Both the position numbers and the translations under genes were made by a program. From Asterella californica (Eukaryota; Streptophyta; Marchantiopsida; Marchantiales; Aytoniaceae): a stretch of DNA of 64,000 nucleotides. Shown piece after piece: positions 9,290-58,079 of this stretch. How positions within the stretch are numbered: position 1 is the first letter of the stretch; every line of letters begins with the position of its first letter. A model generated the notes under the pieces. It worked only from the letters and a program-made list of their open reading frames with translations, was not told the DNA's origin and did not search any database. Location: the NCBI GenBank assembly GCA_036924285.1, contig JAYKYS010000009.1, forward strand, positions 20,626,001 through 20,690,000. Direction: 5' to 3'.

Positions 9290-10651
9290 TAGTTTTGGTA
9301 TGGGGCATATCTCCGGACCTGATTGTTGCTAATACTGCAGTATTTAGGGCCACTTCCCTCTGTGGCGAATATTCTGTTTCGTGAACTAGTAAGGAACTTA
9401 CCGCTTCGGGATGAAAACTGGAGTTTTTACTTGAAAACCGTGCAAGAACTTTTGATCTTCCTATTCCTTATTTTCGAAGAAGGATATTATTCACCTCATG
9501 TACACTGGAACGGTTAGAATATAAATTAAATTTTTCATAAAATGGCACGGTTGAGAATTAAGGTCTCGTACTTATCTTCCCAACAACACATCAACCTAGA
9601 CTCTAATTATGGTTTATATCTGAATGAGTTGGCTATTTCGAGACTGGTTAATATATATCATTTATAAATTAATTTAAATTTTATAATAATATATAATAAA
9701 ATATTTACATAATATTTACATATATTCTGATAAAAACAAAATTCATTATACAAGGCAGTGGAGAAGGATATTGATATATCTTTTCACCTGTGTTTTTCGT
9801 GAAAGCTTGAGTTTAGTGGCTCTTCGGGGAATATTCGACTAAAATGCAAGAATCTATTTCTTCCGTGGTAGTGGGAAGCAGCTGCTTATTACCGATCCTC
9901 GTCTGACACGCACGCGGAGGACATCTAGTCGAAATAAGCTAAGAGTGGGAGAGACCTTAACTTGGACATTCGTCGCTAAATTTAGAATACATATTATTCT
10001 AAATTTAGCGGAATGGAAAGCATGCGTGTAGCATAAGATAATTTGTACTGACGGACGTCTTCATGCGCCTATCACTAACTCCTACTCACACTGTAGTAGA
10101 TCCAAACTTGGACCGAGGAACCCATACCTTGCACCTACTGTGGTTCATGCGTTCGTGCAACAGAAAGATCGACGTGGTTAGTTGAGAAAGTTGACATCCA
10201 ATAATATTTCTCCTTCCTTTGTAATATTCAATTTAATATATAATTAAGAGAAATATATACTGAAGGTCATTCATGTGATATATTGTAACCACATGTACGT
10301 TACTTAAGACATATTATAGTAAATTTTAATACTTACTTGATAACGAGGACTGTTTTTTGTCTTTTGATTTTTAAACTGGAAATATCATCATATATCACCT
10401 TTTCAAGTTTTTTCCGGGGGAAACCCCGCAGGACAAAATGATAACACATCGGGAAACCGTCATATATCACCTTTTGATCTTTAAAATTCAAAAGAAAATA
10501 ATAAGAAAATCCTTAAAAATAAGAGGCAAACTCCCACATGCTTTTGACAAATAAGTTAATTTAATGATCCGCTAGGAAAAAATACGAGGGTCTTGTATGT
10601 TTGTACTCTGTACAGATAGGAACTGATTCTTAACTTCACATTTCTTGGTGA
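9290..10651. other. AT-rich spacer with one perfect hairpin
   Basis: No gene is supported. At 9974-10010 a perfect 15-bp inverted repeat (CGCTAAATTTAGAAT, 7-nt spacer, then its complement) could form a hairpin. Its function is unknown; it may be the relic of a small palindromic element. Confidence 0.35.
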
Positions 10652-11052
10652 TGTCGTGCGCATACACATCGCTACACAACATACATCGCTGTCAGAAATA
10701 CACCACACATACACATAACACATGGACGATGTCATACACATACACAAGTGTACCACAATAATCTGAATACAGAGATTACCATCTCCAACACCACAACAAG
10801 GACTACTCACAAACGGTCAAGCCAAACCCACTCTAAACGCGAAGAGAATCCGGGTTACACTCAACTAGACTATCCACCATAGCCTGGAGCTTGAAGGCTC
10901 AACTCAAAGAACTAAGGCCTCCAAGCCCTACCTGTGAAGTTTACCCCTAGTGGGCTCTCTCTCCAACTCGCCTTAACGGCACTAACGGCCTTATCGGGAT
11001 GCGCCACTTCGCACTCGGTCAACCTAGCCGAGGTGCCCAAACTGACGTGACA
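10652..11052 (-). repeat. Element 1 3' LTR (401 bp)
   Basis: On the minus strand it starts TGTCACGTCAG and ends GCGCACGACA. Positions 10759-11052 match the 5' LTR at 20303-20596 with only a few differences. The terminal part of about 106 bp (10652-10757) is missing from the 5' copy but present again just upstream of this LTR (11055-11160). A copy of the same LTR, with both parts, is at 58080-58489. Confidence 0.8.
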
Positions 11053-11054
11053 GC

Positions 11055-11160
11055 TGTCGTGCGCATACACATCGCTACACAACATACATCGCTGTCAGAA
11101 ATACACCACACATACACATAACACATGGACGATGTCATACACATACACAAGTGTACCACA
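11055..11160 (-). repeat. 106-bp block duplicated on both sides of the 3' LTR core
   Basis: This stretch is identical or nearly so to 10652-10757. The same block also sits before the 3' LTR of Element 2 (about 43601-43704) and at the end of that LTR (about 58380-58489), so the arrangement block-core-block is shared by two copies. Either the real LTR begins with this block, since it directly follows the purine tract at 11161-11172, or the block was duplicated once in an ancestor. Confidence 0.7.
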
Positions 11161-11175
11161 ATCGCCCCCCTAACT
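11161..11175 (-). other. Candidate polypurine tract of Element 1
   Basis: On the element strand the sequence reads AGTTAGGGGGGCGAT immediately before the duplicated 106-bp block. Position and composition fit the plus-strand primer of an LTR retrotransposon. The matching place in Element 2 (about 43586-43600) is also purine-rich. Confidence 0.45.
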
Positions 11176-11334: not shown

Positions 11335-11997
11335 CTATATACATCGAGGACAAACCCACCGTCCAGTAGGAACTACACTGAGAGGTGGAGTCAAACATGA
11401 CATGTGCCAACCTCTCGAACAACCATCACACACCAACATGCGGGCTGCTCCACCAGCAGACCCACACAACATACACCTCAAGCCCGCACGTACAACTGCT
11501 AAGCTTGGGTCAACGGTACCATCAATGTTGGGAAGATGACATGGCGCGCAATTACGCACATGGTCCTTCCACACAACACCATCACGGCCCTCTAACATGA
11601 GTACTCCAGAAGGTAACACCTCACGCACTCGTAAAATAGTGCGCCCTGCGGTCACGTCCAATGTCGTCGGTGCAGTCTGCTGTAGATAGATATAATCGCC
11701 AGGATGAAACCTGCGAATCGACGGCCGATAACCTCCTCCTCGGATAGTCGCATACTGCAACATGTCTCTATGCTGGGCAATCGCTAGGTTCTCAAAAGCC
11801 ATAGGCATAACTCTCCGAAATGTCTCTGCTCGTTGAGAACATGCTCTCACCCACATATCCGGGTCATCAAGGTCCAGCACCTCAGCAGAATCACGACGAA
11901 TGGCCGAAGGTAGATCTGGGTCTCGACCATACAATAAGAAATACGGTGAGAAGGAAGCCAAAGACGCTTGTCGGCTAAAACGGTAGCCCATAGCCAA
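11335..11997 (-). CDS. Element 1 integrase C-terminal part with PHD finger
   Basis: This 220-codon segment continues the integrase frame after a single TAG (12007-12009), a position that is CAG in Element 2. Residues 17-28 (SFSPYFLLYGRD) are the usual region after the integrase core, and 92-150 form the basic beta-rich C-terminal domain. Residues 175-219 are a complete C4-H-C3 PHD finger: C175, C178, C190, C193, H198, C201, C216, C219, with W214 before the last cysteine pair. PHD fingers read histone H3 tails. This one has the LVCDGC...GWH...CL.PPL..VP.G.W.CP.C layout seen in PHDs of the ATXR5/6 kind, so H3-tail binding is a reasonable inference. In many plant chromoviruses a chromodomain occupies this place and guides integration; here a PHD finger takes it. 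The frame ends at 11335, within the last PHD-adjacent residue, so the finger is the true C terminus. Confidence 0.85.
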   Translation of the reverse strand: MAMGYRFSRQASLASFSPYFLLYGRDPDLPSAIRRDSAEVLDLDDPDMWVRACSQRAETFRRVMPMAFENLAIAQHRDMLQYATIRGGGYRPSIRRFHPGDYIYLQQTAPTTLDVTAGRTILRVREVLPSGVLMLEGRDGVVWKDHVRNCAPCHLPNIDGTVDPSLAVVRAGLRCMLCGSAGGAARMLVCDGCSRGWHMSCLTPPLSVVPTGRWVCPRCI

Positions 11998-12006
11998 CCA
12001 TGGTAA

Positions 12007-12981
12007 CTACACATCCCAGTCTCCCAAGTGGCCCTTCTGCAAGCCATACTTGTGCAATCCTCTCTTCACCGTCTGAACTACCCTCTCCGCCAAACCATCC
12101 GCCTCAGGATGATCTCGAGATGTAGTCCGATGATCAATCAGCGCCTGATCACACAAGGCCTGAAACTCACCAAGGAACTCTGTACCTTGGTCTGTCAGCA
12201 CTTCAGCTGGTGCTCCGAAACGACTCAGCACTCGATCTAAGAACGCGTACGCCGTCCCTTCACTCGCCTTGTCTGGTAATGCCACCAACTCAATCCACTT
12301 GGAGAAGTGCTCCACCATCACCAACACATACCGGTGGTGACGTACGGTCAACGGTAAGGGTCCCGCAAAATCCAAACTCCAACGGTAACCCAACCCCATA
12401 ATCGGTAAGGGGTGTAACTGTGGAGTAGGAGCATTAAACGATGCTCGTACTCGATCACAAACCACACATCGTGCGACAAATTGTTGCACATCGATGTGCA
12501 TACCACGCCACCAATACTGTCCTTGGAGTAAGCTATGCGTACGCTTCACTCCAAAATGTCCCAACTCCTCATGGGCATGTCGTACTAACTGTTCCCTCTG
12601 GGATGGATGTGGCACTATCCGTACCCTTCCATCACCCCACACTCGAAGTACATGTCGTCTTTCTCGTCGAAATCTCTTCGCTCGTTGAAGGACACGATCT
12701 CGCTCCTTGGCACTTACTGTGCCTACTACCACACCAGTACGTAGATACTCCATCACGATCACATCATCATGGATATCTCGCTGGTCTGGAACACCATCTC
12801 CACCCTCAGGATCTGGAGACTCATCATCTACTCTCTGACCAGAGAAAGATACGACTTGGCCCTCCATACTAAAGTTCATGGCCAACACACAAAGAAAGGC
12901 AGATGCATGCCACCCTGACACTATCTCCTCATCAACCTCGTCATGCCAGCGAGCCCCAGTTGATCCTGCTGACTCGTGCAC
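12007..12981 (-). CDS. Element 1 integrase (zinc-binding and catalytic domains)
   Basis: This domain cuts and joins element DNA into the host genome. In this 324-codon frame an HHCC zinc-binding region covers about residues 137-175 (H137, H142, C172, C175). The catalytic triad is D204 (SLDF), D264 (LTDQGTEF) and E299 (GLAER), a normal D,D-35-E spacing. It belongs to the same polyprotein as the RT but is one frame off in this copy. Near 12954-12963 Element 1 is one base shorter than Element 2, where RNase H and integrase are in one frame, so this is an indel and not a designed frameshift. The apparent start Met lies inside the RNase H overlap and is not a real start. The frame stops at a TAG where Element 2 has CAG. 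Confidence 0.88.
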   Translation of the reverse strand: MHESAGSTGARWHDEVDEEIVSGWHASAFLCVLAMNFSMEGQVVSFSGQRVDDESPDPEGGDGVPDQRDIHDDVIVMEYLRTGVVVGTVSAKERDRVLQRAKRFRRERRHVLRVWGDGRVRIVPHPSQREQLVRHAHEELGHFGVKRTHSLLQGQYWWRGMHIDVQQFVARCVVCDRVRASFNAPTPQLHPLPIMGLGYRWSLDFAGPLPLTVRHHRYVLVMVEHFSKWIELVALPDKASEGTAYAFLDRVLSRFGAPAEVLTDQGTEFLGEFQALCDQALIDHRTTSRDHPEADGLAERVVQTVKRGLHKYGLQKGHLGDWDV

Positions 12982-14429
12982 GGGTTGCGACTCAACCCGT
13001 CGGCATCTAGGTTTGCAACTCCAGGTCTATGTACTACCTGGAAGTCATACTCCTGTAAGATCAGAGCCCATCGTGCAAGCTTCCCTGTAAGCTTGTCGGA
13101 CTCCATCAACCACTTGAGCGGCTGGTGATCCGTGATGAGAGTAAAGGGGTTCCCAAACAGATAACATCGAAAGTGTGCAACAGCCCACACTGCCGCCAAA
13201 CACTCTCCCTCATACGAACTATACCTCGCCTCCGCTGAATTATTGGAGCGACTGGCATACGCCACCACGAACTCCTTTTTCTCATCATCATGCTGAGTCA
13301 GCACTGCTCCAAGTCCCAACATACTCCAATCGGTGTGCAGTTGGAAAGGACGCCCCCTAACGGGTCTCCTCAAGATGGGAGCAGATGTCAACCTATCCTT
13401 GAGCTCTACAAAAGCTCGCTCCTGCTCATCTCCCCACTGCCACTCCTGGTCCACCTTCATCAGCTTGGTCAACGGCTTCGCAATTGCACTAAACCCTTTC
13501 ACGTATCGACGATAGAAGTTCGCCAAACCAACAAATGCTCGAACTCGACTCACATCTGTGGGGCGCGGAATACGTGCAATAGCCTCAACCTTCGTCTGTT
13601 GAACACCCAATCCACCTGGATAGATGGTGTGGTCCAGATACTCTACCAACTCCTGGAAGAACTTACACTTCCTAGGGTGTAACTTCAACCCATGAGCTCT
13701 CAACCGCTCAAACACATCCCGTAAGTGTCTCTCGTGCTCCTCCACTGTAGCACTATAGACTAAGATGTCGTCAATATAACATCTGACAAAATCCAATCCT
13801 GCTAAGATTCTGTCCATCACCCTTTGGAACTCAGCAGGGGCGTTCTTCAACCCAAATGGTAAGAACCGCCACTGATACAAACAATCCTTGCCGTGAGAGT
13901 CAATTCCCCAAAATGCTGTCTTGGACTTATCTTCTTCTCTCACTGGCAACTGATGATACCCTGCTCGAAGATCCAAAGTACTGAAGACCTTCACATGCCC
14001 CACTGCATCAAAGATCTCCTCAGGTGTCGGCATGGCATACTTATCGGACTTCATCTGCCGATTGATAGGACGGTAGTCTCCACACATCCGTCTATCCGTG
14101 TAGTTGCCATACATATCCTTCTTGGCTGGCATAACTGTGGCAGATGCATACTCTCCATGCGACATCTCCACCAACCCAGCCTCCAATAAGTCTTGAGTCC
14201 GACTCTGGATCAAGGCTCTCTCCATGTCACTGTATCTGTAAGGACATCGAAAGATTGGCTTGTCATTAGCCAAGTCGATCCGTATACCAGGTCCCTTCAA
14301 GGTACCCAAATCCTTCATACTGAAGGCAAAACAATTCCTATAGCTCTTCAGGAATCTTTGGACTCTTCGTCTCTCCTCTCTTATAAGCTTGGGTCCGATC
14401 TCCGGCTCCCAAGTATCCTCTGTCACCAT
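12921..14429 (-). CDS. Element 1 reverse transcriptase and RNase H
   Basis: This copies the element RNA into DNA. The frame has 502 codons. RT motifs are visible in order: a fingers motif near 99-122 (MPAKKD...RMCGDYRPIN), motif A at 149-160 (FSTLDLRAGYHQ), motif B near 189-204 (FLPFGLKNAPAEFQR), the catalytic YIDD at 218-221, then the palm-thumb and connection region. RNase H follows from about residue 345 (FQLHTDWSMLGLGAVL) through ITDHQPLKWLM to LDADGLSRN. The frame is the same as the methyltransferase upstream: only the TAG at 14460-14462 and ten codons separate this Met from it, so this Met is probably not the start and the domain is made by readthrough. The sequence is well preserved, with no stop inside. 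Confidence 0.9.
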   Translation of the reverse strand: MVTEDTWEPEIGPKLIREERRRVQRFLKSYRNCFAFSMKDLGTLKGPGIRIDLANDKPIFRCPYRYSDMERALIQSRTQDLLEAGLVEMSHGEYASATVMPAKKDMYGNYTDRRMCGDYRPINRQMKSDKYAMPTPEEIFDAVGHVKVFSTLDLRAGYHQLPVREEDKSKTAFWGIDSHGKDCLYQWRFLPFGLKNAPAEFQRVMDRILAGLDFVRCYIDDILVYSATVEEHERHLRDVFERLRAHGLKLHPRKCKFFQELVEYLDHTIYPGGLGVQQTKVEAIARIPRPTDVSRVRAFVGLANFYRRYVKGFSAIAKPLTKLMKVDQEWQWGDEQERAFVELKDRLTSAPILRRPVRGRPFQLHTDWSMLGLGAVLTQHDDEKKEFVVAYASRSNNSAEARYSSYEGECLAAVWAVAHFRCYLFGNPFTLITDHQPLKWLMESDKLTGKLARWALILQEYDFQVVHRPGVANLDADGLSRNPCTSQQDQLGLAGMTRLMRR

Positions 14430-14453
14430 GCTAGAGGTAGAAGACGAAGTCGT

Positions 14454-14462
14454 TGACTGCTA
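14454..14462 (-). promoter_or_regulatory. Probable stop-codon readthrough site, UAG CAG UCA
   Basis: On the element strand, TAG at 14462-14460 is followed by CAG TCA. This matches UAG-CAR-YYA, the experimentally defined readthrough context of tobacco mosaic virus. Methyltransferase upstream and reverse transcriptase downstream are in the same frame. Element 2 keeps the stop and the context with a different third base (TAG CAA TCA, 38762-38770), so the site stayed intact while the neighbouring sequence drifted. Readthrough would make the RT-integrase part a minor product, as gag-pol readthrough does in other retroelements. Confidence 0.65.
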
Positions 14463-15935
14463 TCTTGCAGCCTCTGGAGCAGTTTCCTTCTGCTCACCAC
14501 CAACAACCTCCACCGCTACTGTGTGTAAAACTTCTGCAGTTCTAGCTGCAAACTCCACACTCTCTCCTATGACATCCCATGATGTCCAAGGATGACGAAC
14601 TCCACGTGCCTCGCCCCCAACCTTTGCCTCCACCGACCCGGTAGGCAAAGAGCTCAAGAGTGCTCGAGCAGTAACACCCGTCGATCGCATCCGACGCTGC
14701 TCAGCCAATCCAAGGCTAACAATCCATGTCAAGCAATTCAAGTCCATTGCTTGACCCAATACTTGACGACGTGAAGCCTCCGACACCGAAGCTACTGCCG
14801 TCGTACCCGTAGTGAAACCCATCGCTCGCTCTCTCTCATCGGCATTGGGCTCCACCAACTGCCGTAATTGAGCATCCCACACAAGCCTAGGTCCTCCATC
14901 TCTGTAAGCATGTGACGCTGGAAAGCTTACCAATGTGGGTAACGCTACCATGGGCCGTCCCACTAGGTTCACCACTGCCATGGGTGACCTATCGACGACT
15001 CTCACTACTTGAGATCGTCGTCTTGCATCCAAGATGCTATCAACAGTGAGATGTGCTGGTCGTCTCACTCCATCGTGTGCTCGCTTAAGCACCTTTCTCG
15101 GTAACAAGTTCGTCCACCACAACCGTGGACGATGTGCACGAGATCCTACTCTCGCTGCATCCAACAACACTGCTGGTCCAATCCAAGACCGCACTTGGTG
15201 CACACTCGCCATCATCTGTGTACGAGCATCACCCAACAAAGAAACGTTCTCCAAGATGTACGCTGGAGAATCCATCTGATGCATCTGGAGATGTCGTAAG
15301 ATCCGTAACATCTCCCATAACATCCTAGATCGCGGGTCATGTAAACCCTGACCTCTCCCTGCACGCGTGTGACCTTGACATGGCCATCCGGCTATCACCA
15401 AGTGAATGGTGCCCACAAACGTAAGATCCTGCGCCCCCAGCAGCGAAATATCCGACGGTAATGCTTGCTGGTATCCTCTAACAGCTGATATGGGCAACAA
15501 CTCAAGATATCTCTGCACCAAACGTGCCACATGTCGCAATGAGATGCGTCTCGCAATCTCATCTCTCTCCACATACAAGTATCGCTGTACTTGTATACCT
15601 GCCTGCAATACCGCAGCCAAACCTATGCTGATCCCTCCAAACAGCTCCAGCACACATACACCTTCCTCTGGATACTGCCACACAATGGGAGTCGTATCCA
15701 ACGGTGATAAGGTCACAGGGTCAGTAGCAGGAACAACCCTTTGTTCCTCTACTGGTGGTACAAAAGCTTCACTCCAAGCCTGCTGCACCAACTGATTAGC
15801 ATACTGCTGCAACTCTCCACTCGAACTCCAGAGTGGCACATCCAAGGCAGATGGTATTAACGTAGACATGCTAGGCATGTCCTCCACCTCCTCATAGATC
15901 GGAGTATCCTCCGCATGGGCATTACCCTCCAACAA
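14460..15935 (-). CDS. Element 1 DNA (cytosine-5) methyltransferase, DNMT3-like
   Basis: This would transfer a methyl group from S-adenosylmethionine to cytosine in DNA. The 491-codon frame shows the conserved motifs in the standard order: motif I at 95-105 (LELFGGISIG, SAM binding), motif II at 121-126 (YVERDE), motif IV at 179-190 with the catalytic cysteine in GWPCQ (C186), motif VI ENV at 229-231, motif VIII near 259-276 (LDAARVGSRAHRPRLWWTN), and motif IX-X at about 366-406 (RERAMGF..., RRQVLGQAMDLN). The spacing, LFGGI...GI motif I, and RRQ.LG.....C motif X are closest to DNMT3/DRM. The unpermuted order is like animal and bryophyte DNMT3, not angiosperm DRM. About 90 residues precede the domain. 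The frame is the same as gag-protease upstream, from which it is parted by one TGA (15945-15947), and as RT downstream. The first codon is TTG, so it is best read as a polyprotein domain. All catalytic residues I can check are present. Confidence 0.85.
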   Translation of the reverse strand: MLEGNAHAEDTPIYEEVEDMPSMSTLIPSALDVPLWSSSGELQQYANQLVQQAWSEAFVPPVEEQRVVPATDPVTLSPLDTTPIVWQYPEEGVCVLELFGGISIGLAAVLQAGIQVQRYLYVERDEIARRISLRHVARLVQRYLELLPISAVRGYQQALPSDISLLGAQDLTFVGTIHLVIAGWPCQGHTRAGRGQGLHDPRSRMLWEMLRILRHLQMHQMDSPAYILENVSLLGDARTQMMASVHQVRSWIGPAVLLDAARVGSRAHRPRLWWTNLLPRKVLKRAHDGVRRPAHLTVDSILDARRRSQVVRVVDRSPMAVVNLVGRPMVALPTLVSFPASHAYRDGGPRLVWDAQLRQLVEPNADERERAMGFTTGTTAVASVSEASRRQVLGQAMDLNCLTWIVSLGLAEQRRMRSTGVTARALLSSLPTGSVEAKVGGEARGVRHPWTSWDVIGESVEFAARTAEVLHTVAVEVVGGEQKETAPEAAR

Positions 15936-15944
15936 CTCGTCCGG

Positions 15945-17780
15945 TCAAGTGATGATCGAACTGAACCCTGCAACGGATGCCATCGTTCCTGGTGTAGGCT
16001 CCGTCGTCCCAACTCTAGCACTGAACCGCACTGGTAAGCGGCTCACTCGTCCCTCACCGGACTGCCAACCTGGTCTGTAAGATGCTGTCTCTGCCCAATA
16101 GTCAATCACGAACCCCATAGGGTACAACACAGCACCTCCCACCAATACATCATAAGACTCTGCGGCTGTAACAATGGCCTTGGCCTTCACCATAGAGCCA
16201 TCCGTAGGGTGATCTGGCTGAACTCTCACCGTCAACATCTCCCGTGTCATGTGTAGAGCCGTACCTCCTGATCCCCCTAGAGATGTCTGCAATTGGAATG
16301 GACATCTCTCTATCTCGGACTTCTTCAGACCCAAACCAATACACGCCGCCTTTCCCAACATCAACGGTTGGGCTCCAGAGTCTAACAAGACCTTCTGGGG
16401 TCGATACACTTTCCCTGAAGGTGCCACCAAACAGAAGATACCACTTCTGTTGTCCAACAACACCAAACCTGGTGCCAAACTAGCACGGTCAATCGCCGGC
16501 CTAGCTGGTAACTCATCTAACCTAGCAGTCGCCGCTTGCCAAGTACCACTGGTAGCTGTCTTGATCCTCGACTCCATGGACACGTCTACCGTCTCTCGCT
16601 GAACTACTTCAGCACTAGAGGTAACTACATCCTCGCTCTCACTGAGCGTGGCCGCCAACTGGAACACTGGAGCCAAGTTGACTCCCAATGCCCTCATATC
16701 CGTGGCTGAGAATAGTGGGGCTCGCAAAACTGCTGTAGTCGCCCCCAACATCGGGTTCGACGTCGCATCCACAGACGTCCAAGGTGGACTCACATCACAC
16801 CCACTCCTGGATGTCGATGCCTCCAACTCTACTGCACCATCGGTAGGTCGTTTAGGAACCATAGATGTGGTCCTCAACACCTCCGATAACGTGAACGACT
16901 GGGGAAGCCTGGCTTGTCTACCAGCCTCCCCGCGTTGTGGATCCAACTCCACTGACGCACCTCGTGGCTCAGAGGCACGTACTGCACATCTAGTCACTGC
17001 TGCAGATGTCTCAATCTGCGCCACACCAGCCATGAAGTCGAAGTCACCTCCTTCTCCTCCATAAGACGTGAAAGCCTCTGTTCTACCTGATCTCCGCTGA
17101 GCCATAGCCATACTAGCTATCCTCTGCTCCAACTGCTCAATCCGAGCAGCCATACCTACCTCTGACGTCGTAGCAGACGATGGAGCGACCGGTCCTCTCC
17201 CAGGTGCTGGACCTCTACCTCCAGCTCGACCACCACGGCCTCCCTGAGCTCCTCCGCCTCGTCCACGATCAGCCTTCTCTTGCCGCAACTCGGGATGGAG
17301 ATCAAAACAACGGTCACTACTGTGACCAGGTCGTCCGCAATGCTCACATTGCCTAGGTACTGCTTGAGACGTCCCTGATGTCCCTGACGTCTCATAACCT
17401 CTCCTCTGTGGACAGTCCCTCTGCTGATGAGGACCATCACACATCCAGCAAGGACCCGCTTGCTGCTGACTAGAGAAGGACGGCATGGGCTTCTGCCCAC
17501 CAGATCCTCCTACACCTCCCTGCGATCGTGACTGCTCTGCACGATCCTTACCACCACCACCACCACGCTGTTGCGTAGCCTGTGATCCTCGAGAAGAGGT
17601 GGTCGCTCCATGTGGTGTCTCCTTGCTAAACCCAGCAACCACCACCCTCTCCTCCACCATGTTGAGCTCAATCCGCTCAGCCAGACTAAAGACAACCGCC
17701 AACGTCGGAGAGGTATCTCTAAGAAGAGTAGCATCTCTAACTCTCCTACGCAGCTCCCGGTCTAGTATTCCATACCAGAA
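15945..17780 (-). CDS. Element 1 gag C-terminal part (nucleocapsid) and aspartic protease
   Basis: The frame continues gag after a TAG at 17781-17783. An early segment (FWYGILDRELRRRVRDATLL) completes the capsid-type helical region. Two CCHC zinc knuckles that bind RNA follow: C-W-M-C-DGPH-QQRD-C and C-E-H-C-GRPG-H-SSDR-C. A Gly/Arg-rich stretch comes next, then a long low-conservation linker. Retropepsin is near the end, with active site LLDSGAQPLML, followed by a DVLVGGAVLYPMG flap-end motif, as in Ty3/gypsy proteases that process the polyprotein. The frame ends with TGA (15945-15947), directly before methyltransferase codons in the same frame. Element 2 is deleted here, so I cannot tell whether that TGA is a signal or decay. 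Confidence 0.8.
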   Translation of the reverse strand, partial: FWYGILDRELRRRVRDATLLRDTSPTLAVVFSLAERIELNMVEERVVVAGFSKETPHGATTSSRGSQATQQRGGGGGKDRAEQSRSQGGVGGSGGQKPMPSFSSQQQAGPCWMCDGPHQQRDCPQRRGYETSGTSGTSQAVPRQCEHCGRPGHSSDRCFDLHPELRQEKADRGRGGGAQGGRGGRAGGRGPAPGRGPVAPSSATTSEVGMAARIEQLEQRIASMAMAQRRSGRTEAFTSYGGEGGDFDFMAGVAQIETSAAVTRCAVRASEPRGASVELDPQRGEAGRQARLPQSFTLSEVLRTTSMVPKRPTDGAVELEASTSRSGCDVSPPWTSVDATSNPMLGATTAVLRAPLFSATDMRALGVNLAPVFQLAATLSESEDVVTSSAEVVQRETVDVSMESRIKTATSGTWQAATARLDELPARPAIDRASLAPGLVLLDNRSGIFCLVAPSGKVYRPQKVLLDSGAQPLMLGKAACIGLGLKKSEIERCPFQLQTSLGGSGGTALHMTREMLTVRVQPDHPTDGSMVKAKAIVTAAESYDVLVGGAVLYPMGFVIDYWAETASYRPGWQSGEGRVSRLPVRFSARVGTTEPTPGTMASVAGFSSIIT

Positions 17781-18599
17781 CTAGACTGCCTGTGCTTCCA
17801 TCACCCCTTGGGTAACGCTGATCAACCGCCTCATGCGAGTAAACGCCTCGCGTAGGCTCTCTCCAGTCTTCCGCTGGAACTCCTGCAGACTCCTCAACTT
17901 GTCGGTCCGCACACCCTGATAGTTCTTCCTCAAACATTGGAAGAACTGAACCACAGGGTTAAACCCTGGTGGTATCCCGCTCACACTACCACCTGCTCCA
18001 CTACTTGTGGATGCACCGATAGTAGGTACTCCACCACCTGTGGCTGCACCACTGCTACTGGCACCCGAACTCGCAGGTGCTACGCCTCCCGAAACTACGC
18101 CAGTAGTGATAGAAACGTAGTTGGGAGACCAATGTTGTCTCCACAACTCGATCTCAACACTGTAATCTCGCCTGAACTCATGATAATCGTCCATCGGCGG
18201 TCCCTCCAAGTGCTGGAACAAACCCTTCCACGCCATGAAGGGTGTAAACAGCTGTGGGTTCCGCATCTGCTGCAGATCGCACCAACTGTCGAACTCTTGG
18301 ATGAAGTCATCCAGCTCAATGGTACCAACTGTACCCGAGTAACGTCGAGACCCCTTCGTGGCCCCATAGATCTCGTCCATGTCCCACAACAACGGTGTGG
18401 CGACACTAGACTCACCATCAGAAAACGCGCTGTCTGCGTCTGACTCGTCCTCTGGAACAACCGACGGCAATGGTGTAGGTAGTCGGTACCTCACCCCACT
18501 CCGTGTATACCCACTGTCCGAGAAGTCCCCACCAGAACCTCCCGAGAACTCCGTGATGAGCGAATCCCGCCAACACACTCCCCAACTGGAATGTCGCAA
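17781..18599 (-). CDS. Element 1 gag, capsid-like N-terminal part
   Basis: This forms the particle shell. The 272-codon frame starts with an acidic and Ser-rich stretch. A retrotransposon gag fold follows at about residues 85-150 (ELDDFIQEFDSWCDLQQ, then a W..L..HLEG helix) and again near 215-268 (FFQCLRKNYQGVRTDKLRSLQEFQRK, RESL-type helices). The frame is closed by a TAG, but gag sequence continues in the same frame behind it. The next residues make CAG-to-TAG decay the simplest explanation. The first codon of the open frame lies about 1.7 kb from the 5' LTR; the real Met may be any of the early ones. Confidence 0.75.
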   Translation of the reverse strand: MRHSSWGVCWRDSLITEFSGGSGGDFSDSGYTRSGVRYRLPTPLPSVVPEDESDADSAFSDGESSVATPLLWDMDEIYGATKGSRRYSGTVGTIELDDFIQEFDSWCDLQQMRNPQLFTPFMAWKGLFQHLEGPPMDDYHEFRRDYSVEIELWRQHWSPNYVSITTGVVSGGVAPASSGASSSGAATGGGVPTIGASTSSGAGGSVSGIPPGFNPVVQFFQCLRKNYQGVRTDKLRSLQEFQRKTGESLREAFTRMRRLISVTQGVMEAQAV

Positions 18600-20302
18600 T
18601 CTCCGTCACCACCGTAACCACCACTTGCCTAACCCCGCTCCTACTGAGCTCACCTATCTCCTACTAGGACGGTCAAGGTAAGGGCAACCTGTACCTGCCA
18701 TCACCACAGGCAGCCTCTCACGGTCTGTTGGTCGTCACTCCAACCGCACCGTGAGAGAGACAAAGATAGTCTGACTGGTCCACAACTCCAGCCTCACTAT
18801 CGACAGCACACTGGAATGAACTCACTCCGGAAATCAAGCGCCAACACAAGCAAACGCGGCGCACAAACAGGAAGCAGAGTATGGAGGGGTTCCAACCACA
18901 AGAAGTCCAAACGATAACCCTCCACACTCAAACATTCACATAAAGAGAAACCCAGCCCCACCCGGACTGACAACTCCTTGTCGGTGACCACATGCACAAT
19001 ATATGGTCACCAACAGTCGTAACTGACACTGGAGGTCACTAACTAGATGTCCACACCTCTAGTAGCTCCAAAAACATCCACGTGGTAGCTCTACTAGCTC
19101 ACCCAAGACAACTGCCACCAATTGCCTCCATACGCGCCTCTACGGTGTAGGCAAACACTACCACAACTATAGCTTCCCCCTAATACTGTGGGGTCACCCT
19201 ACCACTCCTCTAGGGACGTGCGAGAAGGTCTCCTACTACCTTATACAAGTCCATAAGTACTTGCACGCATCCCTGTAGGACACCAAGAGCTATTGGTCTA
19301 GTGGTAAAGCCAAAGCTAAGACTACAGAGTCAAGAGTCCATGTCCAGGAATAGTGTTGGGATGGGTGACCAGCTGGTTTTACCCTTCCCACACACCTGAA
19401 GCTTGGATACCTCTCTCACGCACGCCAGCAAGCTGGCTTGCGGCGGGCGCGGGCTCGGGCTCAGGCTCAGGCTCAGCTCCGCTCCGCCTCCGCACTCTCG
19501 CACTCCGCTCTCACGCCTCCGCACTCACGCAACTCTGCTCTCTCCGCACTCCACACCTCGACACTCCTGCTCACTCTCCGCTCCGCTCCGCTTGAAGTAG
19601 AGTAGAACAGGTACACACACACCAGAAGAAGCTCGAATTGCAAAGGATTGCACCAAAACAGCCTCCAAAACAGCGAAAACAGCTTGCGGGTGCACACGGG
19701 TGACCAAAATCTGACGTAAAACAGCAAGAACCTCCAAATCCAACCCGAACACCACCAAAACAGATTCGCAAATGCACCACACACACTTCGCGGATGCACA
19801 CACACACACAAAAAAACTACTAAACTCGAGTTTTCTCACGAAATTGAGCCAAAATCTGACGTAACTAGCCTTTTAGTGCTTGCGGGTTTCACGGCAGCGA
19901 ACTTCGACATGCCATAACTTCTTCAATCCTTGGCCAAACTCCACGAAACTTAGTGCGCTAGAATCGTCTCTCCAATGCGCTTCCAAAGAGTCCACTCCGG
20001 CCCGACATTGACAAGTATTTCAGCTGCTACGCCCAAACGCGCAATCCGACTCCAACAACACACTTCAAGAACATTCTGCAAAATTTCTGCAGCGCTTCCG
20101 CATGACAGAAATCTCCACTCGATCCCAATCAACAGCAAATCGATCTGCGACAGCAATGTAGCACGGCGTCCACACACCTCGATCACAGCTCCAAACAATC
20201 AACCACGAACAACAACGCCCGAAGATACCAGCGGACGATTTCCGATTTCAGATCTGCGAGCTCTTACTGAACTCCGCCTCGACCTGCACTGAGTTCTTTG
20301 AG
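18600..20302 (-). other. Element 1 5' leader
   Basis: About 1.7 kb between 5' LTR and gag without a defensible gene. It includes a GC-rich low-complexity run (about 19440-19590, repeated CTCCGC and GGCTC words) and a CACA-rich stretch (about 19785-19812). No convincing primer-binding site lies next to 20303, possibly because the 5' LTR has lost its last 106 bp and its neighbourhood. Confidence 0.5.
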
Positions 20303-20596
20303 TAATCTGAATACAGAGATTACCATCTCCAACACCACAACAAGGACTACTCACAAACGGTCAAGCCAAACCCACTCTAAACGCGAAGAGAATCCGGGTT
20401 ACACTCAACTAGACTATCCACCATAGCCTGGAGCTTGAAGGCTCAACTCAAAGAACTAAGGCCTCCAAGCCCTACCTGCGAAGTTTACCCCTAGTGGACT
20501 CTCTCTCCAACTCGCCCTAACGGCACTAACGGCCTTACCGGGATGCGTCACTTCGCACTCGGTCAACCTAGCCGAGGTGCCCAAACTGACGTGACA
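20303..20596 (-). repeat. Element 1 5' LTR, lacking its last 106 bp
   Basis: It matches 10759-11052 of the 3' LTR closely over about 294 bp, then diverges exactly where the 106-bp terminal block should begin. Its outer end abuts GTGA, which also flanks the other side of the element. A deletion after insertion would remove the U5 end and the tRNA primer site, so this copy could not be mobilised in the normal way. Confidence 0.75.
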
Positions 20597-20600
20597 GTGA

Positions 20601-36897: not shown

Positions 36898-37874
36898 CAG
36901 TCTCGGCCCGGCATCCCAAACAACTTCAACACACACACATCCTCCTCTGGATATTATCATACAACGAGAGTCGTATCCAACGGTGATAAAGTCACAGGAC
37001 CAGTAGTAGGAACAACCCTTTGTTCCTCTACAGGTGGTACAAAGGTTTCACTCCAAGCTTGCTGCATCAACCGATCAGCATACTGCTGCAACTCTCCATT
37101 CGAACTCCAGAGTGGAACATCCAAGGCAGATGGTACTACCGTAGTCATACTAGGCATGTCCTCTATCTCCTCAAAGACCGGAGTATCCTCCGCATGACCA
37201 TTCCTCTCTAACAACTCCCACAACCAAGCTGACTCTCAATGCCTTCATATTCGTGGCTGAGAATATTGAGGCTCGGAAAACTGCTGTAGCCGCCCCCAAC
37301 ATCAGATTCGACGTCGCATCCACAGACACCGAGGATTGTCTCGCATCATCCCACTTTTGGATGTCACGTCTCTAATTCCACTGCACCATCGGTAGGCCGT
37401 TTAAGAATAATAGACGTGGTCCTCAACGCCTTCGATAACGTGAATGACTGAGGAAGCTTGACCTGTCTACCAGCCTTCCCGCGTTGTGGATCCAACTCTA
37501 CCGACGCACCTCGTGGCTCAAAGGCACGTATTGCACCTCTAGTCACTGCCACAGATATCTCAGTTTGCACCACATCAGTCATGAAGTCGAAGTCAACTCC
37601 TTCTCCTCCATAAGACGTGGAAGCCTCTGTTCCATCAGATCTCCACTGAGCCATAGTTATACTAGTTATCCTCTGCTCCAACTGCTCAATCCGAGCAGCC
37701 ATATCTACTTCTAATGTCGTAGCAGGCGATGGATCAACTGATCTTCTCTCGGGTGTTGGACCTCTACCTCTAGCTCGACCACCACGGTCTCTTTGAGCTC
37801 CTCCGTCTAGTCCACGATCAGCCTTCTCTCGCCGTAGCTCGGGATGGAGATCAAAACAACGGTCACTACATGCG
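36898..37874 (-). pseudogene. Element 2 inverted gag and methyltransferase 5' fragments
   Basis: This block is in the same orientation as Element 1 and therefore opposite to the rest of Element 2. 36920-37218 matches the N-terminal extension of the Element 1 methyltransferase (about 15651-15925). 37219-37870 matches gag (about 16672-17325), with the 0.75 kb between deleted. At about 37875 the sequence flips to the plus strand in the middle of methyltransferase motif IV, so an inversion breakpoint cuts the catalytic PCQ region. Confidence 0.75.
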
Positions 37875-38764
37875 TGCTGGGAGAGGTCAAGGTTTATATG
37901 ATCCGTGATCTAAGATGTTTTGAGAGATGTTACGAATCTTACGACATCTTCAGATGCATCAGGTGGATTCTCCAACGTCCATCTTGGAGAACGTTCCTTT
38001 GTTGAGTGATGCTCGTACACATATGATTACGAGTGTGCACTAGGTGCAGTCTTGGGTTGGACCGATAGTGCTGTTGGATGCAAAGAGAGTGGGATCTCGT
38101 GCACATCGTCCACGGTTATGATGGACAAACTTGTTACCAAGGGAGGTGCTCAAGCGCGCACACGATGCAGTGAGACGATCATCATGCACGGTTGATGACA
38201 TCTTGGATGCAAGATGACGATCTCAAGTAGTGTAAGTCGTCAATATGTCACTCATGGTAGTGATGAACCTAGTGAGACGATCCACGACAGCATTGCCACT
38301 TTAGTGAGCTTTTCACCGTCAAATGCTTACAGAGATGGAGGACCTAGGCTTGTGTGGGATTAAAACAGTTGGTGGAGTCCAATACTGATGAGAGAGAGCG
38401 GACGATAGGTTTCTCCGGGTACGACGGTAGTAGCTTCGGTGTCGAAGGCTTCACGTCGTCAAGTACTGGATCAAACAATGGACTTGAATTGCTTGACATG
38501 GATTGTTAGCCTTGGATTGACTGAGCAGCGTCAGATGCGATAGACATGTGTTACTGCTCGGACACTTTTGAACTCTTTGTCTATCGAGTCGGTGGAGGCA
38601 AAGGCTGGGGGCGAGGTGTATGAAGTTTGTCATCCTTGGACATCATGAGATGTCATAGGAGAGAGTGTGCAGCTTGCAGCTAGGACTACAAGAGTTTTTT
38701 GCACAATGACGTGGAGGTTGTTGGTGGTGAGCAGAAGGAAACTGCTCCAGAGGCTATAAAATAG
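37875..38764 (+). pseudogene. Element 2 methyltransferase remnant
   Basis: It corresponds to Element 1 from just after motif IV to the end of the methyltransferase frame. Traces of ENV, motif VIII and motif X can be aligned, with multiple stops and shifts. The frame returns to order near the end and stops at TAG 38762-38764 in the readthrough context. Confidence 0.7.
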
Positions 38765-38770
38765 CAATCA
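38762..38770 (+). promoter_or_regulatory. Element 2 copy of the readthrough context, UAG CAA UCA
   Basis: TAG CAA TCA sits at the position equivalent to the Element 1 methyltransferase/RT junction. The next codons continue into RT in the same frame. It differs from Element 1 only at the wobble base of CAR. Confidence 0.6.
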
Positions 38771-40267
38771 ATGACTTCGTCTTTTATCTCTAGCATGATG
38801 AAAGAGGATACTTGAGAGCTAGAGATTGGACCCAAGTTTATAAGAGAGAAGAGACGAAGAGTTCAGAGATTCCTGAAGAGTTACAGGAATTGTTTTACCT
38901 TCAGTATGAAAGATTTGGGTACCTTGAAGGGACCTGGTATACGGATCGACTTGACTAATGACACGTCAATCTTTCAACGTCCTTACAGATACAGTGACAT
39001 GGAGAGAGCCTTGATCTAGAGTAAGACTCTTGGAGGTTGGGTTGGTGAAGATGTCGCATGGAGAGTATGCATCTGCTACATTTATGCTAGCAAAGAAAGA
39101 TATGTATGACAACTACACGAATAGACAAATGTGTGGAGGCTACCGTCATATCAATCGGCAGACGAAGTCCAATAAGTATACTATGCCGACACCTGAGGAG
39201 ATCTTTGATGTAGTGAGGCATGTGAAAGTCTTTGGTACTTTGGATCTTCGAGCAGGATATCATCAGTTGCCAGAGAGAAGAAGATAAGTCCAAGACAACA
39301 TTTCTGAGGAATTGACTCTCACAATAAGGATTGTTTGTATCAGTGACGGTTCTTATCATTTGGGTTGAAGAACGCCCCTGTTGAGTTCCGAAAGATGATG
39401 ATCAATCCTAGCAGGATTGGATTCTGTCAGATGTTATATTGATGACATCTTAGTCTATAGTGCTACAGTGGAGGAGCACGAGAGACACTTACAGAATGTG
39501 TTCGAGCGGTTGAGAGCTCCTAGGTTGAAGTTACACCTTGGGTAGTGTAAGTTCTTCTAGAAGTTGGTAGTGTATCTGGACCACACCATCTACCCAGGTG
39601 GGCTGGGTGTTTAACAAATTAAGATTAAGACTATTGCACGTATCTCATGTCTCACATATGTGAGTCGAGTTTGAGCATTTGCTGGTTTGGTAAACTTTTA
39701 TCATTGATACGTGAAAGAGTTTAGTGTAATTGCGAAACCATTGATCAAGCTGATGAAGGTAGACCAAGAGTGCCAGTGGAGAGATGAGCAAGAGCGAGCT
39801 TTTGTATAGCTCAAGGATAGGTTGACATCTGCTCTCATCTTGAGGAGACCCGTTAGGGGGCGTCCTTTCCAACTACACACTGATTGGAGTATGTTGGGAC
39901 TTGGAGCAGTGCTGACTCAGTATGATGATGAGAAAAAGGAGTTCGTGATGACGTATATCAGTCGCTCCAACAATTCAGTGAGGTGAAGTATAGTTCGTAT
40001 GAGAGAGAGTGTTTGACGGCAGTGTGGACTGTTGCACACTTTCGATGTTATCTGTTTGACGACTCCTTTACTCTCATCACTGATCACCAGCCGCTCAAGT
40101 GGTTGATGAAATCCGACAAGCTTACAAGGAAGCTTGCACGATGGGCTCTTATCTTACAAGAGTATGACTTCCAGGTAATGCATAGACTTGGAGTTGCAAA
40201 CCTAGATGTCGATGGGTTGAGTCGTAACTCATGCACGAGTCAGCAGGATCAAACTGGGGCTCGATGA
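38771..40267 (+). pseudogene. Element 2 reverse transcriptase and RNase H, decayed
   Basis: The sequence is homologous to 14429-12921 of Element 1. Intact pieces are 39030-39287 (fingers and motif A, FGTLDLRAGYHQ) and 39983-40267 (RNase H end, DHQPLKWLMKSD). The YIDD-equivalent region (about 39430-39450) is present but frame-shifted. At the RNase H/integrase join the reading frame is continuous here, unlike in Element 1. Confidence 0.75.
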
Positions 40268-41757
40268 CATGACGAAGTTGATGAGGAGATAGTGCCAAGG
40301 TGACATGCATCTACCTTTCTTTGTCAACTCTAGTATGGAGGATCAAGTCGTATCTTTCTCTTGTCAGAGAGTAGATGATGAGTCTTCAGATCTTGAGGAT
40401 GGAGATGGTGTTCTGGACCAACGAGATATCCATGACGATGTAACCGTAATGAAATATCTATGTATTGGCGTGGTGGTAGGCACAGTAAGTGCCAAGAGCG
40501 AGATCGTGTCCTTCAAGGGAGCGAAGAGATTTCGACGAGAAAGACGACATATACTTCGAGTGTGAGATGATGAGAGAGTACGAATAGTGTCACATCTATC
40601 TCAGAGGGCACAGTTAGTATGACATGCCCATGAGGAGTTGGATCATTTTGGAGTGAAGCGTACGCATAGCTTACTCCAAAGACAATACTGGTCAAGTGAT
40701 ATGCACGTCGATGTGCAGCTGTTTGTCGCACGATGTGTGATTTGTGATCGAGTACGAGCATCGTTTAATGCTCCTACTCCACAGTTACACCAATTACCGA
40801 TTATGGTGTTGGGTTACCGTTGGAGTTTGGATTTTATGGGATCTTTATCGTTGACTGTACGTCATCACCCGTATGTGTTGGTGATGATGGAGCACTTCTC
40901 CAAGTGGATTGAGTTGATGACATTATCGGACAAAACGAGTGAAGGGACGGCCTATGCGTTCTTAGATCGAGTGTTGAGTCGTTTTGGAGCACCAGCTAAA
41001 GTGTTGACAGACCAAGGTACATAGTTTCTTGGTGAGTTTCAAGCCTTGTGTGATCAGGTGTTGATTGATCATCGGACTACATCTCGAGATCATTTTGAGA
41101 CGGATGGTTCGACGGAGAGGTTAGTTCAGACGGTGAAGAGAGGATTGCGCAAGTATGGCTTGCAGAAGGGTCACTTGGGAGACTGGGATGTGCAGTTATC
41201 ATGGTTGGCTATGGGCTATCGTTTTAGCCGACAAGCGTCTTTGACTTCCTTCTCACCGTATTTTCTATTGTATGGCCGAGATCCAGATCTATCTTCAGTC
41301 ATTCGTCGTGATTCTGCTGAGGTGCTAAACCTTGATGATCCGAATATGTGGGTGAGAGCATGTTCTCAACGAGCAGAGATATTTCTGAGAGTTATACCTA
41401 TGGCTTTTGAGAACCTAGTAATTTCTCAGCGTAGAGACACGTTATGATATGCGACTATTCAGGAGAAGGTTATCGATCATCGATTCGTAGGTTTCATCCT
41501 GACGATTATATCTATCTACAGCAGACTGCACCGACGACGTTGGATGTGATCACATGGTGCACTATTTTACGAGTGCATGAGGTGTTACCTTCAAGAGTTC
41601 TCATGTTAGAGGATCGTGATGGTGTTGTTTGAAAGGACCATGTGCGTAATTGCGTGTCATGTCATCTTCCCAACGTCGATGGTATCGTTGATCCAAGTTC
41701 AGCAATTGTACGTGCGGGCTTGAGGTGTATGTTGTGTGGGTCTGCTGGTTGAGCAGC
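40268..41757 (+). pseudogene. Element 2 integrase, decayed
   Basis: Open pieces are 40305-40565, 40638-41024, 41046-41447 and 41444-41632. The HHCC region (HEELDHFGVKRTH...CVICD), SLDF, LTDQGT and a TERLVQ triad region are all recognisable, with a stop at TDQGT. The codon equal to the Element 1 stop at 12007 is CAG here. The PHD finger begins (CMLCGSAG) and is cut by the LTR insertion at 41761. Confidence 0.8.
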
Positions 41758-47215: not shown

Positions 47216-47291
47216 TACTCTCTTTTTGGTGAACTCGACGTGAAACACCTAGGGTGGGAGTTTTCTTGAGAGTGTTACAGGATCAGTTATC

Positions 47292-49664: not shown

Positions 49665-49672
49665 AGATATGA

Positions 49673-58074: not shown

Positions 58075-58079
58075 ACAGC

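What the first reader, a model, noticed from the sequence alone, without database searches (positions are those of the whole stretch)
14460..15935. A DNMT3-like DNA methyltransferase is built into a Ty3/gypsy polyprotein
The methyltransferase has the SAM-binding motif, catalytic PCQ, ENV, motif VIII and motif X in standard order. It lies in the same frame between protease and reverse transcriptase, and its remains are found at the same place in Element 2, so it belongs to the family and is not a chance insertion. From memory, cytosine methyltransferases inside LTR retrotransposons were reported in dinoflagellates and a streptophyte alga; a land-plant case with DNMT3-type order would extend this. 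The element might methylate its own DNA, or host DNA, to control its copy number or to survive in heterochromatin.
Basis: partly seen in the sequence, partly recalled or inferred. Interest (0 to 1): 0.92.

Follow-up and report, generated by a model that had tools for sequence, protein, structure and literature searches.

The report
Liverwort retrotransposon carrying a DNA methyltransferase
A family of recently active jumping genes in a liverwort carries its own DNMT3-type DNA methyltransferase next to its protease; similar elements are known from algae, and this one shows the design in land plants, with several unexpected working parts.

Summary
Confirmed. Window 14460-15935 (-) encodes a DNMT3-type cytosine-5 methyltransferase (MTase), motifs I-X in standard order, between protease and reverse transcriptase of a Ty3/gypsy element. 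It is no chance insertion: 87 copies (96-100% identical) were scored genome-wide, 43 in an open frame of at least 1368 codons. Relatives occur in Marchantia, Calypogeia, Sphagnum, Closterium, green algae and metagenomes. Corrections: the MTase ends the Gag-protease frame and is separated from RT by a conserved UAG-CAR-YYA stop, so it is probably made in Gag-like amounts. A PHD finger follows the integrase. Repeats are split (A1-coding-B1-A2-B2) as in DIRS elements, yet a DDE integrase leaves 4-bp target duplications (15 of 15 readable copies). Purine tract, self-primer site and a variable A2|B2 joint fit a circular DNA intermediate. Copies are young; inherited variants show purifying selection on the MTase domain. 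This copy is broken. The closest known system is KnitGypsy-Dnmt3 of the alga Klebsormidium (2018), with the same repeat plan. New here: land-plant hosts, the place before a readthrough-type stop, the PHD finger, the circle evidence. Most likely role, untested: methylating the element's own new DNA. Activity, target context and effect on the host are unknown.

The parts
20597..20600 (-). target-site duplication TCAC upstream of A1
20303..20596 (-). repeat A1, 5' end TGTCACG
   Evidence: 98% to A2
20292..20302 (-). primer-binding site CTCAAAGAACT directly after A1, complementary to A positions 142-152 (self-primer)
17784..18605 (-). gag frame, first part (upstream limit = stop codon; start codon not determined)
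   Evidence: part of one long open frame in other copies
17781..17783 (-). in-frame stop, a lesion (many other copies are open through gag-protease-MTase)
17412..17450 (-). zinc-knuckle-like CX2CX3HX4C
   Evidence: read from the translation
17307..17348 (-). zinc knuckle CX2CX4HX4C (nucleocapsid)
   Evidence: read from the translation
16365..16388 (-). LLDSGAQP, aspartic protease motif (name from recall; no Pfam hit in this frame); relatives P0038 and P0133 carry Asp_protease_2 before the MTase
15945..15947 (-). in-frame stop, a lesion: 16 of 20 copies have no stop in the 303 codons before the MTase; L020 has a TGA at the same distance
14463..15935 (-). MTase part of the Gag-protease-MTase frame (491 residues)
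14706..15659 (-). DNMT3-type C5-MTase domain, residues 93-410
14460..14462 (-). conserved TAG followed by CAG TCA (UAG-CAR-YYA readthrough motif)
   Evidence: 28 of 28 locus reads (20 distinct copies); TAG CAA TCA in Element 2; motif in PMC3542737
12921..14459 (-). reverse transcriptase and RNase H, same frame as the MTase
   Evidence: RVT_1 1.9e-31, RT_RNaseH 1.2e-36
12007..13026 (-). DDE integrase (H2C2 + rve); out of frame with RT and followed by a stop (12007-12009) in this copy; in others it lies in a 1041-codon open frame
11341..11475 (-). PHD finger at the C terminus of Pol
   Evidence: PF00628 1.1e-11
11162..11175 (-). polypurine tract AGTTAGGGGGGCGA directly before B1
11055..11161 (-). 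repeat B1, 3' end CACGACA
11053..11054 (-). GC dinucleotide at the B1|A2 palindromic joint CACGACA-GC-TGTCACG
10759..11052 (-). repeat A2
10652..10758 (-). repeat B2, 3' end CACGACA
10648..10651 (-). target-site duplication TCAC downstream of B2
37846..38761 (+). MTase remains in Element 2
36915..37867 (-). inverted piece of Element 2 (gag/protease and N-terminal MTase part)
38762..38764 (+). TAG (followed by CAA TCA) between MTase and RT of Element 2
38765..41761 (+). RT, RNase H and integrase remains of Element 2 (PHD end at 43330-43434)
43600..43708 (+). B1 of Element 2
58078..58489 (+). A2 (58078-58303) and B2 (58383-58489), taken as the far end of Element 2, cut off from B1 by an unrelated Ty3 insertion; its A1 was not found

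Best explanation
A recently active Ty3/gypsy family of a liverwort encodes, in one frame, Gag-protease-MTase, then a UAG-CAG-UCA stop that is probably read through to give RT-RNase H-integrase-PHD. Shown by sequence: domain order, conserved stop, split repeats A1-coding-B1-A2-B2, 4-bp target duplications, purine tract before B1, self-primer site after A1, intact MTase motifs, purifying selection on inherited variants of the domain. Inferred life cycle: A-derived RNA primes reverse transcription; by the standard rules the cDNA would be BA-coding-BA; its ends are joined into a circle (the A2|B2 joint); the integrase opens the circle at the palindromic B|A joint and inserts it. Inferred role of the MTase: being on the Gag side of the stop it is made in excess over RT and packaged, and it methylates cytosines of the element's own new, probably circular, DNA before or at integration, which protects it or marks it for chromatin; the PHD finger probably guides integration to a histone state. 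Rough likelihoods: anatomy and DNMT3-type MTase 0.95; readthrough 0.8; circle intermediate 0.75; methylation of own cDNA 0.5.
For: MTase class: (the 50 Foldseek rows listed, of 1125 matches at E<=10, are all DNMT3-containing entries; 173 of 491 model residues have pLDDT 90 or more). Family: 87 scored copies, 43 in an open frame of >=1368 codons without stops (my count); 40 of 119 integrase hits in a 1041-codon frame without stops, the length from the UAG to the last stop (my count). UAG. Selection: variants shared by two or more copies pN/pS 0.17 in the MTase domain (20 copies) and 0.04 in RT (8 copies), singletons 0.49 and 0.43. Youth: A1/A2 differ at 0-9 of 290-295 sites, median 2, in 15 copies. 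Repeats: 15 of 17 copies complete, one A-A...B, one 3' end not found; 4-bp duplications in 15 of the 15 copies with both ends readable, 2 of 17 not readable. Circle: A2|B2 joint 345 exact-pattern sites, 13 of the 100 listed carry 1-4 extra bases; A1|primer site 0 of 100 listed of 203; B1|A2 0 of 100 listed of 332; Fisher p 3.6e-7. Self-primer: 11 nt in 20 of 20 copies, extended to 28 nt in one of them.
Against: No MTase activity is shown; in the precedent the KnitGypsy-Dnmt3 MTase gave no methylation in yeast, called inconclusive by the authors (PMC5890265). CpG depletion is slight (0.75 against 0.83-0.84 outside; an unrelated, perhaps older, Ty3 nearby 0.37), and singleton C-to-T changes are commonest at CHG in the MTase and protease pieces, at CG only in RT: no clear trace of CpG self-methylation. 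The MTase domain is less constrained than RT, and the stretches beside it show no constraint (linker pN/pS 0.48 shared, 0.11 singletons; C-terminal tail 0 synonymous and 2 nonsynonymous shared). An ATG 11 codons after the UAG would also allow re-initiation in place of readthrough (sequence). The copies read were the best MTase matches, so selection and stop conservation are measured on a biased sample. The A2|B2 count may include solo remnants, which could be older; by eye 5 of the 13 variants have a listed B1|A2 joint about 300 bp away. The A-A...B copy (L017/L036) is not explained.
Confidence: 0.6

Rival explanations
1. The MTase acts on host chromatin: released from the polyprotein it methylates host DNA or lowers the family's own expression, a copy-number brake.
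For: DNMT3-type fold and a PHD finger in the same element, which together recall the MTase plus histone-reading ADD module of host DNMT3 (recall).
Against: No nuclear targeting or expression data. A brake is hard to square with some hundreds of copies (203 exact A1|primer-site joints; 345 A2|B2 joints) and their youth (median 2 differences between A repeats in 15 copies).
Confidence: 0.2
2. The domain has lost or changed catalysis and serves as a DNA- or RNA-binding, or RNA-methylating, part of the particle.
For: The region between motifs VIII and IX did not align with DNMT3A in the PDB matches shown; KnitGypsy MTase was inactive in yeast (PMC5890265). Shared-variant pN/pS is higher in the MTase than in RT (0.17 against 0.04).
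Against: Catalytic and SAM motifs are conserved in most relatives with letters there, from liverworts, Sphagnum and metagenomes.
Confidence: 0.2
3. Passenger: a chance capture without function, kept only by youth.
For: Copies are young; the stretches beside the domain show no constraint.
Against: The MTase sits in the same place in the older Element 2 and occurs in Calypogeia, Marchantia and Sphagnum proteins; purifying selection on shared variants of the domain.
Confidence: 0.04
4. Split repeats arise by another route, for example template switching during plus-strand synthesis, with no circle.
For: Extra bases at the A2|B2 joint could also come from an imprecise jump.
Against: A2|B2 is just the joint expected from joining the two cDNA ends fixed by the purine tract and the primer site; some inserts look like the end of the purine tract.
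Confidence: 0.25
5. The liverwort family captured its MTase from a land-plant DNMT3 independently of the algal elements.
For: A tree that groups the liverwort/Sphagnum clade with the host DNMT3 is not rejected (AU p 0.315). The MTase sits elsewhere in the algal-type elements (after RNase H).
Against: The best tree has all 72 retro-MTases on one branch (SH-aLRT 99), though the tool warned that long branches meet there; RT (39-43% over long stretches) and IN-PHD (34-47%) are more like those of the algal-type MTase-bearing elements than like the one unrelated Ty3 compared (26-27%) (no wider RT search was made).
Confidence: 0.25

Closest known systems
KnitGypsy-Dnmt3 of Klebsormidium nitens (PMC5890265; parts 1-3 of 7 and passages read)
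   Same: DNMT3-type MTase in a polyprotein with Gypsy domains, repeats arranged as in DIRS, purifying selection on the MTase
   Different: Described there as inside the Pol ORF; here the MTase is upstream of a conserved UAG, on the Gag-protease side. PHD, UAG, self-primer, target duplications and circle joints do not appear for it in the parts that I read (the word PHD occurs 0 times in the main text); figures and supplements were not seen.
MTase-bearing gypsy-type elements of green algae and metagenomes found here (such as P0106, P0114, P0123, P0125, P0138)
   Same: Related MTase, RT, integrase and (in several) PHD finger
   Different: Order RT-RNase H-MTase and MTase-integrase-PHD in single predicted proteins, that is, MTase after RNase H
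SymbioDIRS-Dnmt3 of Symbiodinium (PMC5890265)
   Same: DNMT3-type MTase in a retroelement with A-coding-B-A-B repeats
   Different: Tyrosine recombinase, not a DDE integrase
DIRS elements with Dam-type adenine MTase (PMC5890265, PMC6338049, passages)
   Same: Split or DIRS-type repeats together with a DNA methyltransferase
   Different: Unrelated MTase class and a tyrosine recombinase
Tf1 of fission yeast (recall)
   Same: Self-primed reverse transcription with an 11-nt match
   Different: Conventional LTRs, no MTase
Chromoviruses (recall)
   Same: Histone-reader domain at the integrase C terminus
   Different: Chromodomain there, PHD finger here
Host DNMT3 and DRM of the same genome (L048/L049; L045-L047)
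   Same: MTase fold; DNMT3 has the same motif order
   Different: Host DNMT3 matches lie in three separate pieces, as exons would; DRM is rearranged; the DNMT3 and two DRM rows used lie outside the retro-MTase branch in the best tree

Membership tests
DNMT3-type cytosine-5 methyltransferase | C5-MTase fold with SAM motif, PCQ, ENV and motifs VIII-X | tested here: met
DNMT3-type cytosine-5 methyltransferase | standard motif order, not DRM-rearranged, and DNMT3 as best profile match | tested here: met
   (DNMT3A 1.4e-23, DRM 1.7e-10); host DRM rearranged
DNMT3-type cytosine-5 methyltransferase | groups with DNMT3 in a tree | tested here: inconclusive
   retro-MTases form their own long branch beside host DNMT3 and DNMT3A, rooted on host DRM only; no MET1 or CMT row; long-branch warning
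DNMT3-type cytosine-5 methyltransferase | de novo DNA methylation activity | not testable with these tools
   needs an assay
Ty3/gypsy retroelement | order protease, RT, RNase H, DDE integrase | tested here: met
   for RT, RNase H, integrase; protease by motif and by relatives only
Ty3/gypsy retroelement | plain LTR at both ends | tested here: not met
   A1-coding-B1-A2-B2
Ty3/gypsy retroelement | tRNA primer site beginning TGG (recall; self-priming exceptions such as Tf1 are known, recall) | tested here: not met
   CTCAAAGAACT, complementary to A 142-152; no direct comparison with tRNAs was run
Ty3/gypsy retroelement | short target-site duplication | tested here: met
   4 bp, 15 of 15 readable
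DIRS order | split direct repeats | tested here: met
DIRS order | tyrosine recombinase and no target duplication (the latter from recall) | tested here: not met
   rve integrase and 4-bp duplications
KnitGypsy-Dnmt3 | Gypsy domains + DNMT3-type MTase + DIRS-like repeats | tested here: met
   against PMC5890265
KnitGypsy-Dnmt3 | common descent with the Klebsormidium elements | not tested
   no hit bears the name Klebsormidium; most hits are unnamed, and longer polyproteins fall outside the length limits of that search
UAG readthrough element | UAG-CAR-YYA with an open frame downstream | tested here: met
   (28 of 28 reads; RT frame open to the locus edge, 499 codons, in 8 of 8)
UAG readthrough element | a readthrough product | not testable with these tools
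   needs a translation assay

The most novel reading that the evidence does not exclude
DNA methyltransferases recur in retroelements that integrate a circular cDNA (DIRS with Dam, SymbioDIRS, KnitGypsy and this family) because methylation acts on that circle: here a Gag-side, particle-packaged DNMT3-type enzyme methylates the double-stranded circle, and the CpGs inside the terminal TGTCACG and CACGACA boxes let the integrase tell finished circles from half-made or host DNA. This would be an ancient green-lineage replication system, still active in liverworts, in which a DDE integrase opens a circle at a palindromic joint much as some bacterial insertion sequences do (recall).
Probability: 0.15. 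Interest if true: 0.92.

Novelty: new variant of a known kind. Interest (0 to 1): 0.72.

Why it matters
[quoted passage not shown] This family is young and high-copy in a liverwort and has relatives in Marchantia and Sphagnum, so the function of a transposon's own methyltransferase can be asked in genetically tractable plants. It also gives a concrete, testable reason why gypsy elements can carry DIRS-like split repeats (a circular intermediate opened by a DDE integrase) and why methyltransferases and split repeats may go together.

Tried and rejected
Conventional LTRs: rejected. The TAG after the MTase as decay: rejected by its conservation. The stops at 15945, 17781 and 12007 as signals: rejected, because many other copies have one long open frame there. 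The frame change between RT and IN as programmed: rejected, since 40 of 119 integrase hits lie in a 1041-codon frame without stops. A viral source: one viral-contig scan found no relative. Heavy CpG depletion: not found. Rejecting an independent land-plant capture by AU test: failed (p 0.315). Counting the codon at the UAG genome-wide: not completed. Papers: on DNMT-bearing retrotransposons list one primary report (PMC5890265) and papers that cite it; one search was too broad (60,387 papers) to help; (PHD finger with gypsy integrase) gave two papers, seen in the listing only and on other subjects by title. No listed title or passage read reports a land-plant case, but only open-licence PMC papers are held, listings were capped at 20-25 rows, and a 2025 survey of DNMT origins (PMC12344493, passages) mentions DNMT3 members inside retrotransposons without naming all its species; its supplement was not seen. 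Bryophyte proteins of the family are already in public databases, some under the name DNA (cytosine-5-)-methyltransferase.
Full report
WHAT IS THERE. The minus strand of 10648-20600 is one retroelement copy. The finding's frame, 15935-14460, is a complete 491-residue stretch with a C5-MTase domain (residues 93-410). Pfam gives DNA_methylase at 2.7e-8; the nearest solved structures by sequence are DNMT3A/B/C (all 27 hits). A profile of 29 relatives finds DNMT3A at 1.4e-23, DNMT3B at 2.5e-21, plant DRM chains at 1e-10 to 1e-8, bacterial HaeIII and HhaI at about 1e-6 and DNMT2 at 2e-4; no chain named DNMT1 or CMT is among the 56 at E<=1. An AlphaFold2 model (mean pLDDT 73; 173 of 491 residues at 90 or more) matches DNMT3-containing entries in all 50 rows listed by Foldseek, of 1125 matches at E<=10. 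Motif X follows motif VIII, so the order is that of DNMT3 and not of DRM.

POLYPROTEIN. Upstream, in the same frame, lie a Gag with zinc knuckles and a DSG aspartic-protease motif; Pfam finds no family in these two ORFs, but two relatives (P0038, P0133) carry a Pfam protease before the MTase. Downstream come RT and RNase H, integrase and, at the C terminus, a PHD finger (1.1e-11). The copy in the window is damaged: stops at 17781, 15945 and 12007 and a frame change between RT and IN. Elsewhere in the genome the family is intact in many copies: 43 of 87 scored MTase hits lie in an open frame of at least 1368 codons with no stop, and 40 of 119 scored integrase hits in a 1041-codon frame with no stop; both counts are mine from the listings, and the tool calls its totals lower bounds.

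A CONSERVED STOP. Between MTase and RT stands TAG CAG TCA in all 28 locus reads examined (20 distinct copies, the best MTase matches), and RT is open in the same frame to the locus edge, 499 codons, in all 8 copies where that part was held. The older Element 2 has TAG CAA TCA. Both fit UAG-CAR-YYA, the tobamovirus readthrough motif described in PMC3542737 (passages). The MTase is thus the C-terminal part of the Gag-protease product and, if readthrough is the usual few per cent (recall), is made in large excess over RT. Re-initiation at an ATG 11 codons later is not excluded. A genome-wide count at this codon was asked for twelve times and never answered.

REPEATS AND ENDS. The copy has A1-coding-B1-A2-B2. 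Of 17 copies with both ends sought (the window and 16 others), 15 show the full pattern, one has A-A at one end and a single B at the other, and one 3' end was not found. The outer ends are TGTCACG and CACGACA, flanked by an exact 4-bp duplication in 15 of the 15 copies where both ends could be read; in two of the 17 they could not. This is integration by a DDE integrase, not a tyrosine recombinase.

PRIMING. The 11 nt directly after A1 (CTCAAAGAACT) are the complement of A positions 142-152 in 20 of 20 copies; in one of them the complement runs on for 28 nt, as if more of an A-derived RNA primer had been copied. A purine tract AGGGGGGCGA stands directly before B1. By the usual rules of reverse transcription (established knowledge) these two sites make the LTR equal to B+A and the cDNA BA-coding-BA.

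CIRCLE. The integrated form A-coding-BA-B is what results if the two cDNA ends are joined (A|B) and the ring is opened at a B|A joint. The test is the A2|B2 joint, which would be made anew each time. Genome-wide, 345 sites match an exact pattern with a free gap; among the 100 listed, 13 carry 1 to 4 extra bases and one a substitution. The two copied joints are constant in length: A1|primer site 0 of 100 listed (203 sites), B1|A2 0 of 100 listed, with three substitutions (332 sites). Fisher p 3.6e-7 against the pooled controls. Some inserts look like the last bases of the purine tract. A caveat: A2|B2 sites may include solo remnants that are older; by eye, 5 of the 13 variants have a listed B1|A2 joint about 300 bp away. 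The circle remains an inference; that the A2|B2 joint is made anew is well supported.

AGE AND SELECTION. A1 and A2 differ at 0-9 of 290-295 sites (median 2) in 15 copies. Variants shared by two or more copies have pN/pS 0.17 in the MTase domain (20 copies) and 0.04 in RT (8 copies), against 0.49 and 0.43 for singletons; over all 491 codons 0.26 against 0.51; the linker before the domain (0.48 shared, 0.11 singletons) and the C-terminal tail (0 synonymous, 2 nonsynonymous shared) show no constraint. So the domain is kept, less strictly than RT; counts are small (26 shared variants in the domain, 25 in RT) and the copies were the best MTase matches.

METHYLATION TRACES. CpG observed/expected is 0.75 in the element, 0.71 in Element 2, 0.83-0.84 in two stretches outside and 0.37 in an unrelated Ty3 of the window; C-to-T singletons per site are commonest at CHG in the MTase and protease pieces and at CG in RT. 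There is no clear sign of heavy CpG self-methylation.

KINSHIP AND SPREAD. The protein search listed 100 relatives (7998 candidates scored), among them named Calypogeia fissa, Marchantia polymorpha, Riccia sorocarpa, Sphagnum and Closterium, and many unnamed metagenome proteins; a second search from a distant hit (42 proteins) reached Cymbomonas and Monoraphidium. In a quick tree of 72 retro-MTases with host DNMT3, DNMT3A and two host DRM rows, all retro-MTases lie on one side of a branch (SH-aLRT 99), and the window, Calypogeia, Marchantia and Sphagnum proteins form a clade with unnamed ones (100) (72 of the 142 proteins then held passed the coverage filter). The tool warned that long branches meet at the first of these joins, so it may be false; MET1 and CMT were not in the tree. 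Holding the liverwort/Sphagnum clade together with the host DNMT3 is not rejected (AU p 0.315), so a separate land-plant capture cannot be excluded. RT and IN-PHD are more like those of MTase-bearing algal-type elements (RT 39-43% over long stretches, IN-PHD 34-47%) than like an unrelated Ty3 of the window (26-27%), which favours common descent of the whole element; no wider search of RT or integrase relatives was made. In the algal-type elements the MTase sits between RNase H and integrase: it has changed place, or was taken up more than once.

HOST. A MYB protein of the window (31631-32968) is 71% identical to a Marchantia paleacea protein and 48% to one of Calypogeia fissa, the two best named hits, so the host is a liverwort, probably a complex thalloid one; the held genome has 516.7 Mb. 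Size and a Ty3/gypsy burst would fit Lunularia cruciata (PMC9985172, passages), which is not shown. The genome holds DNMT3 and DRM genes of its own.

COMPARISON AND VERDICT. KnitGypsy-Dnmt3 (PMC5890265) is the same kind of element: Gypsy domains, DNMT3-type MTase, DIRS-like repeats. New here, as far as the parts read and the searches run show, are land-plant hosts, the Gag-side place before a readthrough-type stop, the PHD finger, self-priming, target duplications and the joint statistics.

Noticed in passing
window 47253-53128 (+): An unrelated Ty3 element (RT about 26% identical) lying between B1 and A2 of Element 2; CpG observed/expected 0.37. Its upstream ORF matches DUF4100.
   Followed up: partly
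window 29502-29960 and 31631-32968 (+): MYB-domain ORFs; the second is 71% identical to a Marchantia paleacea protein and points to a liverwort host.
   Followed up: yes
L015 3246-3274: One copy has a 28-nt instead of 11-nt complement to repeat A after A1, a possible fossil of the priming RNA.
   Followed up: partly
L017 and L036: A copy with two A repeats at the 5' end and a single B at the 3' end, still with a 4-bp duplication: perhaps the product of another ring form.
   Followed up: no
L046 and L047 (G000 C526 about 5.10 and 5.13 Mb): Two nearly identical host DRM gene pieces about 31 kb apart in opposite orientation.
   Followed up: no
P0104: An algal-type element protein with a G-patch domain after the MTase.
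   Followed up: no
MTase and protease pieces of 20 copies: Singleton C-to-T changes are commonest at CHG sites, which may reflect host CHG methylation of the copies.
   Followed up: partly
G000 genome-wide: A number of A|B joints have no B1|A2 joint 300 bp away in the listed part, as expected of solo A-B remnants from recombination between A1 and A2; seen by eye in the capped listings only.
   Followed up: no
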